In this document: positions 3,066-64,000 of the stretch, in pieces
How positions within the stretch are numbered: the first letter of the stretch is position 1
Layout: each line of letters opens with the position of its first letter
From: Coffea arabica
Lineage: Eukaryota > Streptophyta > Magnoliopsida > Gentianales > Rubiaceae
Assembly (NCBI RefSeq): GCF_036785885.1
Contig: NC_092320.1
Coordinates: forward strand, 12,463,557-12,527,556
Direction of reading: 5' to 3'
DNA: 64,000 nt
Position numbers and translations under genes: made by a program
Notes under the pieces: generated by a model
Database searches by the model: none
What the model was told of the DNA's origin: nothing
Seen by the model: only the letters and a program-made list of their open reading frames with translations

Positions 3066-6000
3066 TTATTCATCCTCCAGCTCCACAATCTGTGCCCTCC
3101 TCTCAGCTGCTTTCTTCCTGATGAAAAAGCCCCATCTCATTGCAGCCTTAATTTTTAGCCAGCCAACAACTGCTTTCCCAGAACGGGTGCGATCCTCCTC
3201 ATAACTGTAGTTTGGAGATGGCGATGGCATGTAAGATTGGAAAGCAAAATTATCATCAGGCACATTAACAGCTGCATGGCCTCCCATGCTGAAAAGTCTA
3301 AGTAGGTGTTGCATATCTTCATTCTCGAGCATCTCATGGCTTCTCAAACGAATTTCCTCCTCCGACAAGAAGTCATCCACACTCTTGTCACGATTTTGAG
3401 TCCAGTCTTCAAAAGGATTGAGGTTGGATGGCTGAACAGATGACCCAACTGTCTGGAATGATGATGATGACTGTGGAGGAGCAAGGGCCAATGCTGCCCT
3501 ATTATCATATCTTGTGTTCTGAATTTGGTGAGAATTGCTGATTTGCTGGTCAGGTAAACCATATGAAGTACTACCATACTGATTGCGGGAACTTGAATTC
3601 AGAATTTGAGACTGGTTAGCATATCTGGTAGCCATATTATCATTATAACCTGAACACGAGATAGTAGTAGTAAAGGTTACAGTAAGATGTAAAGTGGCCA
3701 ACAAAAGTAACATTGCATAACCACAAAACATACCGGTAAATGTGTATATGTAAATGAAGTTGAGAGAAGATACTACACAATGTAAATGGAAAAATCATAG
3801 GGAGGAAAAGGTAATTAGCCCCCAGTTTTGTACCACTAGAAACCAAGAGATCAGAAAAGAAAACATCCCTAATGAAATGCATTCAAATCTCCTGTCTTTA
3901 CTTACCCCTTTTCAAATAGAAGATAAACTCATAAGCAACAAAGGAAGAGGATTTCTCAATCCCAAAGGAGATATATAAGCAAGCATCAGTCTTGGCACAT
4001 ATTGCCTCCATCTCATATGAATGTTTCACATTGACTACTCACTAGGGTTCAGAAAAAGTTCAAGATACAAAAAAACATAAAAAGAAAAGGGGAAACAAGT
4101 TGTTCCATACACCAGATCATGTCCATGCACTATATCCTCTAATACATCCTTCCCTAGGTATTCTTGATATCATGATTGATGGTATCCAATCTTCTCACTC
4201 CAAACCACAAGCGTCGGATCCTTTTCACCAAATTCTGCTACAATGCCTCAACCCTTAGGGTGGAACATATCAGAGAGAGCAAAGCCATATTATCCTACCC
4301 AACCGGAAACATTACCCAAGTTTTCTGATAAATGCATATACTTCAATGTTCAGGACGGAAAAGAAATGCAATAAGAAAAAGAAAAGAAAACATATGGATC
4401 TTACATGGCAAAGGACGAGAAGCTGGGAACAAGTTCAACAACATGGAAAACAATCATGTTGACCTGATATTATAGTTTACCCAACTCAAATAAAAGTAAA
4501 AGGTGCCTATGCTAGGTCCAAGAGGTTAATATGAAATGTTAATAGTTTACCTAACTGAAATGTTACTATGGCTTCATTACTTTAGAATATGATGCATCTT
4601 CCCCTTTAATTGTATGTGTTGTTTGAGAAAACATTTGGGAAAATGGGGTTGACATTAGGAGATTACAGATGCATATATCTTGTACAAAAAGCAAACCAGT
4701 CATCCACTGCATGCTCAAAAGGTAGCAAACCAGATAGCAGTTCATTTGATATTCTATAAGTTGACTTTACCTCCAATCAGCATGTTTGGATCCACTGGAG
4801 ATGGCTCAGATGGAACTGGTACTGGTAATCGGGGCGGATCTGAAAGCTGATTATCCAAAGCATTAGGATAATCCACTGGCCCAACTGGAAGTTCATCCCG
4901 GGATGCACTTGATTTCTTATTTTGCTTGAAGTTCAGAAGAGACTTGCCATCATACTCTATAACTAGGTTCCAGTTGTCATATGCTTTCTTTACCAAACCA
5001 TCAACATATAGCTACAGGTAGAAGAAATGAAAATTCTGTTAATATGCACAACTTTTGCTATGCCAATGAAATTTAGATATTGGTAATTTTGGGAGCTTCC
5101 CCAACCAAATTTAGTACAGACCTTCTGGCTGTCAGAAAGTGAATCTGCTGGAAAATACTGTTCACTAGCTATAAGGCCACTCAGCTCATAGATGTTATTG
5201 AAGACAACACCAACATTTCTTGAATCATCAGAATAGTATACATAAAGCTTCCCACTTAGGACACAAGTCTTTGCATGCTCTATGAGGGCGTCCCACATTT
5301 TATTTGACATACCACTGCCAAGAATCTGCTCTAACACCAAAAGAATATGTCAAATACCAATAAGGCATGTTTCTCTTATACTGGAAGCAGGGATAGTATA
5401 GTAGACTTACAGTTCGCAGCTTCTGAGGGTCTGTGACCACAAGCCTAAGGAAGTGTTCAACTGAAAATATCCCTGCATTGTTTAGTCTTTTATGGAATGA
5501 TCCATCCTTGCCAATCTTCTCCAATCTCCATACATCATCATTCAACGCAGGTGGATAATGCTTTTTGTACACTGCAACAAGGAAAGAAAACTTTTTAACC
5601 AATTATCAAAGTTAACAAGCAAATAAGTCAACCAACAAGTATCATCAAGCAGCCTACATTCCCCTCTGTGATCTTTGACAGTGAAAGCCTCAGTCTTTGC
5701 TTCACGAACTCGTATGCCTTCACAATATCCTGATGCAACCTTGAGGCCAAGTCTGAACTTCCTACTCCTTATCCAACTTGAATTATCAGTGAAGGTAAGC
5801 TCTCCTAAAGTTCCCACACCTTCCTTGAGTGTCACTTGTAGATCGCCAGTCAACAATGGTCTCTTTCCTTCCCGCTCTTTCACAACATGGCTTTCAAATT
5901 CTTCTTGAGTCCAGCTTTCATTATCTTCAGTGTTAAAATCACCTTCTAGCACAATAACATCCAGCTTAACACACGATTCAGGTCCAGAAGTGACAACATG

Positions 6001-26400: not shown

Positions 26401-27400
26401 TTCCAACTTATGGATCCTTAAACTGTTTCACTTAGATTGCTATAATCAAGTAAAATTAACAATATTAGGCATTAGCTTCATATTTGCAATAGACTCAACA
26501 ACTGCACTAGCGAGAAATACTAGGCCAGAAACCATCCCGCACTCATCTTTGTGGGAAAAAAAATACAACAGAATTCATCGTTCTGTCGAGGACGAGTAAC
26601 ATCACATACCGGTATAAATCGCATTGTAGAGTACCAGATGGGCCAGGGCTTGCGACTCCACCAGCAGTCTCAATCACACACATTACGTCTACATTTCGAT
26701 CACCACCTTCTTCATCCCCACTTTGCACACCCCTCATCAACACTTCTAACAACTCAGAGTCTTCTACTCTTGCCCCTTCTCTCTCAGAGGCTAAATGAGG
26801 CGAAATTGGCTCCTTCCACCCATAAATTGTCTTACAAATCAATTCAGAACACAACCCCACCCCCTTTGCTTCATCATTTTCAGCCCCTTCTAATTTCGTT
26901 TCCTCGTACCACCCCAAATTCTCAAAGGCACCCCCAAAGTTCCCAACTTTTTCACTGCCAAAGTTCCCATATTTGGAGTCTTCTCCCAAAAGGGCTTTCA
27001 ATGCCGGGAACGAAGTATTGATAACATGATTCGAAGCAAAAACGGATAACTTGGGACGGTTCTGGAGGGAAAACTGAGAGAATTTGCAGTACACGAAGCG
27101 GGAATCAGAGTCTTCCGGAAAACCCGTTTGGACTGGCTTGAGATAGACAAATTTCTTGGACGTAGAAGAGCAGGAGGAGTTGAGAAAAGCGATAGAAAGG
27201 CCGGCGGAGACGAGGGTCTTGCCGAGTGAAGTGTTAGCAGCCCAAATGGCGTAAATGGGATGACTCAAAGGGTATTCAATAGTGGGTGGGGGAGGAGGTG
27301 CTGGTGGTGGTTGTGCGTGGATGTTGCGGTGGTGCAGTAGACATATAGGGAGTAAACGGCGGCGGACTGGTGGTCTGGATAAAGTTGCAAGTAGAAGCAT
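17454..27400 (-). CDS. BIO3-BIO1: Bifunctional dethiobiotin synthetase / 7,8-diaminopelargonate aminotransferase
   Basis: This is a mitochondrial biotin-synthesis enzyme catalysing two consecutive steps, KAPA to DAPA and DAPA to dethiobiotin. It has fourteen exons: 27400-26610, 26055-25885, 25590-25329, 25080-25000, 23811-23691, 22553-22405, 21814-21720, 20689-20574, 20483-20340, 19765-19632, 19563-19432, 18925-18791, 18052-17940 and 17652-17454. Phases close to 2643 nt, giving 880 aa. The N-terminus ([20 protein letters not shown]) is an Arg-rich, acid-free mitochondrial presequence. The dethiobiotin synthetase half follows, with P-loop ANTSLGKT (55-62), KPVQTGF and [21 protein letters not shown]. 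The class-III aminotransferase half carries [46 protein letters not shown] (Asp676 for the PLP ring) and CFAKLMTGG (probable PLP Lys705). Intron 9 uses a GC donor. The frame is intact throughout. The Arabidopsis BIO3-BIO1 fusion has the same order. Confidence 0.96.
24213..24370. repeat. Degenerate CCAAGCCACNGAACC-type minisatellite in BIO3-BIO1 intron 4
   Basis: Variants of an AACCAAGCCACAGAACCA motif recur irregularly (ACCAAGCCACCGTGAACAAG, AACCAAGCCACAGAACCAAG, TCAAGCCACTGAACCACA, ACCAAGACACAGAACCAAA). The copies are strongly diverged. The frame crossing it has no domain. Confidence 0.5.
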
Positions 27401-60233: not shown

Positions 60234-61570
60234 ATGGGCAGAGCTCCATGCTGTGACAAAGCTAACGTGAAGAAAGGTCCATGGTCTCCTGAAGAAGATG
60301 CTAAGCTTAAGGCATATATTGAGAAACATGGAACTGGTGGAAATTGGATTGCTCTTCCCCAGAAGATCGGTATGTTTTCACGTGATGATTGAATGCTTGA
60401 TCTCACCCTAGGCTTGATTTTTTCAATAGTATACGTAGAAAATATATGACCTGATGAATTTGGTCTTCAGGGCTTAAGCGGTGTGGAAAAAGTTGTAGGC
60501 TTAGATGGTTAAACTATCTCCGACCCAACATCAAGCATGGGGGATTCACTGAAGAAGAAGACAATATCATCTGCAGCCTCTATATTAGTATTGGCAGCAG
60601 GTTAGTACTTGCTTGTCCTTTTGCCCTTGTCAACTATGCTTTTGTCTGTAGAACAAATTCTTCATCCTTGGACATAAATCCTAATTTGTACAAATTTTTT
60701 CATGTTCTTTCCTGTTGATCTTCAATATTATTACCAAAAATCTGATTGTGTGAAGTGCATGTTCGCCATGTTAGGTGGTCAATCATCGCAGCCCAGTTGC
60801 CTGGAAGAACGGACAATGATATCAAAAATTATTGGAACACCAGACTGAAAAAGAAGTTGCTGGGAAGGCGTAAACAATCCCAAATGAACAGACTTTCGGG
60901 TTCAGGCCAGGACCAAAAGGATGCACATGGTGGTATCGAAGAAAACACCTTGCAAAACTTGAGCAGCTCAGCTCTTGAGAGGCTTCAACTCCATATGCAA
61001 CTTCAGAGCCTACAAAACCCTTTTTCTTTTTACAATAATCCAGCACTTTGGCCCAAGTTAAATCCCCTTCAAGAGAAGATGATCCAAAGCCTCCAAAATC
61101 TGACTGAATCCCAGAATCCATCAATGCAACAAGTTTCTCCTAGCCCTCAATCTGGATTGGGCCAAAATATTGAATTCCTCGAGCAATCTGCTATTTCTTC
61201 TAGGCTTCAACAAGAGCTGGAGAACTCTATTAACCCTTTGAATCCCGGAAACAATCCCATAGACTCAACTTTGGCTCCAAAATCAAACGTTATGCAACAG
61301 CCTGGTTCAGAATATCAGCCCATTTCGACTTTTACACCAGCTGAAATTGAAAATCTTCTCAGCAGCAAAACCGCTGGTTTTCTATCATCAGATAATCAGA
61401 TGGCTGAATTTGATTGCTTCAAAGAGATAGACGGTGTGAGGGACGCCCTGATGTGGTGGTCTAATGACATGGATACAAATTCAGCATCCTCGAACTCTTG
61501 GGATTCTGCTTCTCTTCTTCAACAATCCGGAGGAATGTATCAGGATTATGCAGTAGGGTACAATATGTAA
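60234..61570 (+). CDS. R2R3-MYB transcription factor, MYB68/MYB84 type (subgroup 14)
   Basis: Three exons, 60234-60369, 60471-60600 and 60775-61570, all GT-AG, give 353 aa. This is the standard exon pattern of plant R2R3-MYB genes. The N-terminus [20 protein letters not shown] opens the R2 repeat (about 14-64). R3 (about 67-116) runs from [20 protein letters not shown] to [20 protein letters not shown], with the usual Phe in place of the first R3 Trp. [12 protein letters not shown] is the subgroup 14 form. Outside the DNA-binding domain, [19 protein letters not shown] (151-169) plus a Pro/Phe/Trp-containing [14 protein letters not shown] and the C-terminal [11 protein letters not shown] match the Arabidopsis MYB68/MYB84 branch, not MYB36 or MYB87. 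Subgroup 14 genes act in endodermal/suberin differentiation and axillary meristems; which role applies here is not shown by the sequence. Confidence 0.95.
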
Positions 61571-62410
61571 GCAAGCCTAGTAGCTAGGCTAGTCCAAGTC
61601 ATATGAACTTCTAGGAGAATATTGTTTTACTCATAAGAAGGAGAAGATGGAAAAACTGATGGCTGAGTTGTTGTAAATTGTGTGAATAATGTTATGTCCT
61701 TGTATTCTTGCAAATATGTATTCGATATGACTGTTGATCGACAGAACAGTTTTATATGAATTTGAGCGTCGTGTTAAAGTTCCCGTCCCATTGCATTGAC
61801 ATTTTTCGGTCATGTTCATACAAACCAGCCAAGGCGCTAAGTAGCTTGAAGCTTAGAGACAAAACATTGGAATGAAAAAGGTGCAGAACATACAATATTT
61901 AAGGAATTATTTTGATGAAATGTGTTCATAACTGGAATTAGAAGGTGGAAAATATCTACCAAAAGAGATACATGAAAAGGGAATAATATTCACAATTAGC
62001 AAGAAATAACAGAGTTATATCAATCTGCTTCAAGATTCAGATTTTTAAGAAGCAGGAGGTTATACGCTTCATTTAACGGTTCATTCCCCGCACCTTTACA
62101 TTACTAGTTCCATTTTGTCTTTTCAAATTCTTCCACTTCAAACTCCGGTGCAGATTTCACATGTTTACCCGCAAGTTGAGCAAAATGGCTAAACTAAAGT
62201 CGCTAAATGCTGATACCTTAAGGTATACCCACCCCATCCACAGCCTTTTTCCCCCGGCCACCAAAAGAGAAGGAAAAGAAGAAAAGATAGGGAGGAGCAT
62301 CTGAAGTGCTCAAGTGAAAATTTATAATGGAGTGTAGGCTCTCCAGTTAGCATTTTGGGTTTGACCGTAAATTGGTTTTAGTTGGGGTTCGGATTTTTAC
62401 GTATCCTATA
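61571..62410. other. Downstream flank of the MYB gene
   Basis: The MYB 3' region followed by AT-rich intergenic DNA up to the proposed Helitron 5' end. I saw no gene or structured RNA. Confidence 0.5.
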
Positions 62411-64000
62411 TCCTATATATATATAAAAAGGAGTTGGTATTTGACTGTTCGTTGTTTTTCATCCGACTTTTTTAGGGGTAATTTAGGTAACATGTTGGCA
62501 TAGTACAACTGATCCAGTTTCGAGTGCAAGCATACTATGCTTATTGCTATGTGAGTTGATAAGCGTACCCTTGGTGGCATGATGATTACATTCTCAAATT
62601 AAGCTTATGTAGCAGTAGTGACAACTCTACCCTTTTAACCATCCATTAAATCTGTTTTTAAGACAAAGAGGTAGTTGGGTGAATTTGAAATTTAAACTTG
62701 TGCAAAGAGTAGGATTAATTGAATTCAGTAACTGAAGTATCATTAAGACCATATGAATGCATCAAGATGATGATTAATTGACTACTCTATAGTGGAGGTG
62801 TAACTGTAGACGTTTTCCTCTCTTGAACTTCTGCATGTGCAATTGAACTCATACAAAGAGTGGGATGATCAAAATGAGCAATTATGACATCTTAAACATA
62901 GGAGTAATGCATGAGAGATGAGGAATCTCTTGGAAAGCATCTTTAAAGTGTAACTGTAAAACTCTTCCTCTTCAGTAGCATTTGTTGAGCAAATTTTTGA
63001 GGTAGTTGGAATAATGAGGGTTGTTAATATAAAACCTCATTGGTTCAACTGGTTATGGTTCATACCACATGTTGTTACTCTTTTTCTTTCCTTTCCTTGT
63101 GATTTCCATTTCAACCCTTCGTGAAGGTATGCTTATTTTGCTACCCTTCTCCTTCTTATATTCCTTGATTAGATTTGAAAAGTTTGTTTTTTGTTATTTA
63201 AGTTCTTTGATTCAAAAATCCGATGTTCTTTTTTCCATATTAGCATTGTTATATATGTATGATAAGATATCAATGGGTTGTATCTTTTTTTTTTTTTGGA
63301 ATCTGCTTTTGTTTAATTGTTTCAGTCCTGGTAGACGCAGGTTTAACTAATCATTGGATCTGATGATCCCACTATTAAGGTTTGCTTTTCATATCCTTAT
63401 ATACTTAAGATCCATTAAATAGTTTAAATTTATATACAATTCTGATCTCCTTTTCATGTCTTACTCCAATCAGCTGTGGGATGATCAAGCCAAAAGTTGT
63501 CTCCGAATGCTTGAAGGCCATGGTATTTGAGCCATGTGTTTTCATCCTAAATTTCCTATTATAATCATTGGTTCAGCTGATGATATTGTTCCAGGTATGG
63601 TGTGCAACTACTTACAGGTAATTTATACATTTGAAAACTCAACTTATTATTATTCATCTTATGAGAGTGCGATGCACCTGTTTCACTTTTGTAGCCTTGA
63701 TCTCCTCTATTTTTTTTCGGTACTAGGTTCCCTCATTTTTAAGAAAATAATATTTTTTATTCTATACAAAATCATGCTTTATTTCACGGTGAATTTACCG
63801 ATTAAACCACTCACTTGTTATGAATGATGAGTTCTATATATTTAGAAGACTAAATTTAGAGTATTACATATTGACAGTTCTTTTTTACTTTGTCCCATGT
63901 TCTTTTCAACTGAATATTACAAATTTATTAATTGCTACTCTAACTACTTATTCACAACATAGGTATCAACTCCCACGCGTTGCGTGGGACTCTTTGCTAG
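62411..64000 (+). mobile_element. Probable non-autonomous Helitron carrying a COPB2 gene fragment
   Basis: The 3' end has the Helitron signature: an 8 bp hairpin (TCCCACGC, loop GTT, GCGTGGGA at 63971-63989), then 7 bases, then CTAG at 63997-64000. The 5' end proposed at 62411 begins TCCTATATATATATAAAAAG, preceded by A at 62410. That is the A|TC... start with a TATATAAAAGG-like run common in plant Helitrons. A second TCC start at 62404 is possible. Helitrons insert between A and T; the base after 64000 is not in the window. No Rep/helicase coding is present, so it would be non-autonomous. The interior contains a broken coatomer beta-prime fragment with intron remnants, consistent with DNA-level gene capture. 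Confidence 0.7.
63326..63598 (+). pseudogene. Coatomer subunit beta-prime (COPB2) WD40 fragment
   Basis: Two exon-like pieces match consecutive parts of the COPB2 WD40 propeller. The first (about 63326-63379) ends IIGSDDPTIK, where COPB2 has an ITGSDDHT-type strand. After an apparent intron (63380-63473) the second (63474-63598) reads LWDDQAKSCLRMLEGH and then CFHPKFPIIIIGSADD. Stops and a two-base gap disrupt the first piece, and a small deletion plus frameshift lies between EGH and CFHP. The retained intron argues against a processed pseudogene. Only about 40 codons of some 900 are present. It lies inside the probable Helitron. Confidence 0.75.

What the first reader, a model, noticed from the sequence alone, without database searches (positions are those of the whole stretch)
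62411..64000. Helitron with captured coatomer beta-prime exons, ending exactly at the window edge
Seen: a hairpin 7 bases before a terminal CTAG, an A|TC 5' start with a TATATAAAAAGG run, and between them a decayed two-exon piece of COPB2 that keeps its intron. Known: Helitrons end in a hairpin plus CTRR, insert between A and T, and capture genomic gene pieces with introns. Inferred: this is a gene-capturing non-autonomous element beside a MYB gene, not a dead local COPB2 copy.
Basis: partly seen in the sequence, partly recalled or inferred. Interest (0 to 1): 0.75.

Follow-up and report, generated by a model that had tools for sequence, protein, structure and literature searches.

The report
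Helitron carrying old COPB2 gene piece
A short parasitic DNA element of a well-known rolling-circle type, carrying a decayed piece of a vesicle-coat gene, sits next to a MYB-like gene in what is most likely the Arabica coffee genome; it is a clear but ordinary example of its kind.

Summary
The base after 64000 is T. The last 100 bases match 29 places in the window's own 1.2-Gb genome; 22 of these 29 share both ends. The partner contig carries the same locus without the element: similarity breaks at 62404 and resumes at 64001. It is a non-autonomous Helitron. One correction: the insertion runs from 62404, not 62411, because the terminal TCCTATA stands twice in this copy. Window 63343-63631 matches the genome's own multi-exon COPB2-type gene at 74% through an exon end, a whole intron and the whole next exon. 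The captured exons vary about as much as the rest, so no selection shows. The genome is most likely Coffea arabica, inferred from 14 contig lengths against a published table. All 10 young copies lie on odd-numbered contigs, most likely the canephora set (suggestive, P 0.03), while four older insertions are shared by partner contigs. The matching autonomous partner was not identified, though Helitron Rep genes abound. A new, well-delimited member of a known kind.

The parts
62404..64000 (+). whole non-autonomous Helitron as inserted (1597 bp); the family's start corresponds to TCC at 62411
   Evidence: partner contig C12 aligns up to 62404 and again from 64001; copies
62404..62417 (+). 5' terminus, with TCCTATA standing twice (62404-62410 and 62411-62417)
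   Evidence: the empty site has neither; the other 9 young copies have one
62411..62434 (+). conserved 5' end TCCTATATATATATAAAAAGGAGT
   Evidence: identical in 7 of the 9 other young copies, L014 and L015 vary; the 100-base 5' query gave 40 scored matches of 104 candidates
63343..63379 (+). captured end of a COPB2-type exon (LITGSDDHTAK stretch of the parent)
   Evidence: alignment to L039
63380..63473 (+). captured intron, GT...AG kept
   Evidence: colinear alignment to the parental intron
63474..63617 (+). captured whole next exon (VWDYQTKSC...ATTYR in the parent), with a 6-base deletion and an in-frame stop
   Evidence: WD40 by Pfam for the translated piece
63618..63631 (+). first bases of the following parental intron, where similarity ends
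63684..63685 (.). site of a roughly 79-base stretch that is missing in 7 of the 10 young copies, this one included, and present in the other 3 and in the older copies of this build
   Evidence: a deletion by inference
63971..63989 (+). 3' terminal hairpin, 8-bp stem, 3-base loop
63997..64000 (+). 3' terminal CTAG
60234..61570 (+). neighbouring R2R3-MYB-like gene, not part of the element; ends 833 bases before it
   Evidence: sequence and ORF; the name rests on recall, no family search was made

Best explanation
It is a non-autonomous Helitron of about 1.6 kb. An ancestor picked up a piece of a COPB2 gene (end of one exon, the intron, the next exon), most likely during rolling-circle transposition. 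The composite was then copied around the genome by a Rep-helicase supplied in trans by an autonomous Helitron, inserting between A and T without target-site duplication. Shown: ends, copies, one empty site, gene piece with intron, Rep genes in the genome. Inferred: the capture route and which autonomous element drives it.
For: Next base T. 29 matches to the last 100 bases, 22 of 29 (window copy included) with both ends. Of 10 young copies, 8 have A before the TC start and 10 have T after CTAG. In the 29 fetched regions the script picked a CTAG end in 27, followed by T in 24; of the 3 with G, L025 and L034 are mis-picks of the script and L024 is real. Empty site on partner contig C12. Exon-intron-exon colinear with the COPB2-type gene at 74%. 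21 of 29 fetched regions carry at least 230 bases of the captured piece. L035 and L036 share only about 66 bases of the 5' end and 80 to 130 of the 3' end, with another interior: same ends, different cargo. PF14214 Rep: 150 of 763 candidates scored, all 150 over the cut-off, many in open frames above 1100 aa.
Against: No autonomous element with these very ends was found; the 3'-end pattern search for it did not complete. L011 and L012 have G, not A, before the 5' end. Hairpin covariation is moderate: 2 pairs with changes on both sides, reached in 10 of 500 shuffles; paired cells 92.9%, reached in 51 of 500. Only one of the ten young insertions was tested for its empty site.
Confidence: 0.96

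Rival explanations
1. A dead local partial duplicate of COPB2 that merely resembles a Helitron at its edges.
For: The gene piece is decayed and stands near an ordinary gene.
Against: Many copies at other places with the same ends and the same piece; clean empty site; the multi-exon parent genes lie on C7 and C8, not here.
Confidence: 0.01
2. Another kind of gene-carrying DNA transposon (Pack-MULE, CACTA, hAT).
For: Such elements also carry gene pieces (PMC8903248, seen only in a search listing).
Against: None of the 9 inverted-repeat pairs reported for 61600-64000 has both arms at the termini; the nearest, 12 bases, joins 62550-62561 with 63964-63975. No target-site duplication at the empty site. 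Hairpin plus CTAG followed by T.
Confidence: 0.01
3. A Helitron, but the COPB2 resemblance comes from another WD40 gene.
For: The translated piece alone fits many WD40 proteins, others better than coatomer beta-prime.
Against: The nucleotide match runs through the intron of the multi-exon gene that also holds PF04053 (B-prop_COPA_B_2nd) exons.
Confidence: 0.02

Closest known systems
Plant non-autonomous Helitrons with captured gene fragments (maize, rice, Arabidopsis)
   Same: 5' TC, 3' hairpin plus CTAG, AT target, captured gene piece, many copies (PMC2575219 passages; PMC6591975 passages).
   Different: Different family and different captured gene. Two papers of the library hold both 'Helitron' and 'coatomer' (listing only), each with one mention of Helitron; none holds Helitron, WD40, captured and gene fragment together.
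Helraiser / Helibat of bats
   Same: 3' hairpin as terminator; read-through or bypass as a route to capture (PMC4778049 passages).
   Different: Animal element whose activity was tested; ours was not.
Helitrons annotated in Coffea arabica assemblies
   Same: 87,867 Helitron annotations, 2.68% of the Kona Typica genome (PMC12307819 passages); one homoeologous exchange falls within a Helitron (PMC10805892 passages).
   Different: The passages seen name no family and no captured gene.

Membership tests
Helitron | 5' TC and 3' CTRR (mostly CTAG) ends shared by dispersed copies | tested here: met
Helitron | GC-rich hairpin a few bases before the 3' end | tested here: met
Helitron | insertion between A and T without target-site duplication | tested here: met
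   one empty site; T after CTAG in 10 of 10 young copies, A before TC in 8 of 10
Helitron | no terminal inverted repeats | tested here: met
   none of the 9 inverted-repeat pairs reported for 61600-64000 joins the two termini
autonomous Helitron | Rep-helicase encoded by the element | tested here: not met
   longest stop-free frame in the element 105 codons; hence filed as non-autonomous. Rep genes exist elsewhere in the genome
Helitron | an autonomous relative with the same ends | tested here: inconclusive
   read by eye, none of the 150 scored Rep places lies within 100 kb of the 29 end matches; 613 candidates unscored, end search unanswered
gene-capturing Helitron | piece of a host gene, intron kept, with a parent elsewhere in the genome | tested here: met

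The most novel reading that the evidence does not exclude
A COPB2-carrying Helitron subfamily burst within one progenitor lineage of an allotetraploid (most likely Coffea canephora within C. arabica), so its insertions are clean presence/absence markers between subgenomes; and this copy shows a doubled 5' terminus (TCCTATA twice), a possible trace of a stutter when the 5' end was joined.
Probability: 0.4. Interest if true: 0.35.

Novelty: new member of a known kind. Interest (0 to 1): 0.22.

Why it matters
It is a well-documented case of gene-fragment capture by a plant Helitron, with the parent gene's present copies, relatives with other cargo, and an empty site in one genome. Young copies that may be confined to one chromosome set could serve as subgenome markers. 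It changes no general view of Helitrons.

Tried and rejected
Local dead COPB2 copy and other transposon types were considered and rejected (see rivals). Selection on the captured exons: not seen. The guess that an ORF of L035 is the start of a Helitron Rep-helicase (recalled resemblance) found no Pfam match and no match to two Rep ORFs of this genome, which may not reach far enough N-terminal; dropped. The first hairpin scan had a fault for stems of 8 and was redone. The first alignment of 3' ends (18 rows) used wrong coordinates for minus-strand copies and was redone with 14 of the 29 ends, picked by hand for readable ends and variety, so the covariation count is on those 14 only. The alignment and tree hold 24 of the 29 copies; L031, L032, L035, L036 and L037 were left out as fragmentary or of another build. 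The divergence table uses 10 young and 10 of the 14 older copies of that alignment; L025, L026, L030 and L034 were left out. The PDB search with the piece showed only that it is a WD40 stretch. Not answered: empty sites of nine further young copies, the 3'-end pattern search (14 calls, named in the Against line), and donors for 62520-63340.

Full report
What was checked. The window lies at C11:12463557-12527556 of a held genome of 1,197,963,845 bases in 131 contigs. The hairpin folds far better than shuffles (z -4.15; 0 of 200), and it is the only GC-rich stem of 8 or more before CTAG on either strand of the window, against 1 in 100 shuffled windows.

Copies and ends. The last 100 bases match 29 places, the 5' 100 bases 40 scored places of 104 candidates (the counts are lower bounds by the tool's own words). 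All 29 regions were fetched and compared with 62001-64000: in 22 of 29, the window copy included, the match begins at 62407-62414 (in the window copy it runs on into its own flank) and ends at 64000. L026, L035 and L036 have both ends with a weaker last stretch, L025, L031 and L037 show only the 3' side, and L034 lacks the 3' end. The base after 64000 is T. Among the ten young copies (96% or more over the last 100 bases) T follows CTAG in 10 of 10 and A precedes the TC in 8 of 10, G in L011 and L012. Over all 29, the script picked a CTAG in 27, followed by T in 24; of the other three, L025 and L034 are mis-picks and L024 is real.

Empty site. The joined flanks match the partner contig C12:11173415-11173808 without a break at 95%. 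The alignment shows TTTTTACGTA^TATAAATAAAA on C12; the longer loci align up to window 62404 (97%) and again from 64001 (96%), sharing one base of C12. So the insertion is 62404-64000, between A and T, without target-site duplication. The terminal TCCTATA stands twice in this copy and once in the other nine young copies; whether this is a duplication at insertion or a target polymorphism is open.

The captured piece. A family search with PF04053 (B-prop_COPA_B_2nd) gave ten matches: long-frame genes on C19 and C20, relatives with an in-frame stop near them, and multi-exon genes on C7 and C8. I take the last two for COPB2 (the protein stretch VWDYQTKSC...ATTYR as COPB2 is recalled). The two loci, L038 and L039, agree at 5131 of 5185 aligned bases. 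Window 63343-63631 aligns to L039:3086-3377 over 298 columns at 74%, through an exon end, the intron with its GT and AG, and the whole next exon, stopping a few bases into the next intron. The best of 200 shuffled parents gave 32.8 bits against 173. A Pfam scan of the piece gives WD40, 33.1 bits against a cut-off of 27. The piece has an in-frame stop and a 6-base deletion. 21 of the 29 regions hold at least 230 bases of it, 3 only about 50 (L026, L030, L032), and 5 give no match in that search, of which L034 shows the first exon piece in the alignment.

No sign of function. Mean differences among ten young copies are 3.6% in exon A (37 bases), 1.9% in exon B, 1.2% in the intron and 2.1% overall; among ten older copies 7.2, 11.9, 6.8 and 7.9% (the intron and exon limits used there are a few bases off the exact joints). 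The exons are not held back more than the rest. The longest stop-free frame in the element is 105 codons.

Relatives with other cargo. L035 and L036 share about 66 bases of the 5' end and 80-130 of the 3' end with this family and, by BLAST, next to nothing between. Hairpin stems on 14 chosen ends: 92.9% of cells paired (51 of 500 shuffles reach that), 2 pairs changed on both sides (10 of 500), covariation score 0.172 (12 of 500): suggestive only.

Which genome, and when. I saw the lengths of 14 contigs. They fit the chromosome table of Coffea arabica 'Kona Typica' (PMC12307819, passages) if C1/C2 are chromosome 1, C3/C4 chromosome 2 and so on: C1 59.0 against Chr01C 58.5 Mb, C7 52.3 against Chr04C 51.9, C8 48.8 against Chr04E 48.9, C11 63.7 against Chr06C 64.3, C13 40.5 against Chr07C 40.0, C17 44.3 against Chr09C 44.6, C3 and C4 76.9 and 77.3 against 75.9 and 74.2. 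Less good: C2 57.7 against 54.6, C9 55.0 against 49.1, C10 49.2 against 50.5, C12 63.2 against 61.3, C14 50.5 against 43.5, C19 48.9 against 52.5 (Chr10E is 47.0). I infer Coffea arabica with odd contigs as the canephora set; no tool names the genome. All 10 young copies by the 3' end and all 11 matches of 96% or more by the 5' end lie on odd contigs; of the 19 other 3' matches 12 do. Given 22 of 29 odd, ten of ten has a probability of 0.03 (a test chosen after seeing the pattern), so the confinement is suggestive. Four older pairs share 3' flanks across partner contigs at 90-95% (L019/L033, L028/L029, L030/L032, L035/L036) and so predate the split of the two sets. Three of these pairs carry all or part of the captured piece, so the capture is older than that split.

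How it works. A 3' hairpin as terminator and capture by read-through were shown for Helraiser (PMC4778049, passages). Here the Rep-helicase must come from elsewhere: PF14214 gives 763 candidates, 150 scored, all 150 over the cut-off, many in frames above 1100 aa. Read by eye, none of the 150 lies within 100 kb of a match to these ends; the targeted end search did not complete. The capture route is inferred.

Verdict. A real, precisely bounded, non-autonomous Helitron with a captured COPB2 piece. New member of a known kind; ordinary for plants.

Noticed in passing
62404-62417: The element's terminal TCCTATA stands twice, while the other nine young copies show it once and the empty site not at all; possible stutter at the 5' join or a target polymorphism.
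   Followed up: partly
L018, 5' flank, about 70 bases before the element (5334, element orientation): A second Helitron-like 5' end (TATATTATATAAAAAGGAGTTTG...) lies just before the element, and CCATCTAATATAATCTGCA stands before each of the two ends.
   Followed up: no
L036, 1947-7012, element orientation: A 5.1-kb relative holds a 342-codon open stretch that looks, by recall, like the end of a LINE reverse-transcriptase gene; its C9 counterpart L035 lacks about 1.1 kb there, so it is probably a nested insertion.
   Followed up: partly
G000 C20:3133759-3134304 and C19:1648257-1648712: PF04053 matches with an in-frame stop near the long-frame genes on both partner contigs, possibly damaged COPA-like copies.
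   Followed up: no
G000 C8:523936, 540862 and 557788: Three Rep-domain matches with equal scores at an exact spacing of 16,926 bases, which looks like a tandem array of Helitron Rep copies.
   Followed up: no
window 26543-27400 (-): ORF of 285 aa that looks, by recall, like the N-terminal part of a plant biotin-synthesis gene.
   Followed up: no
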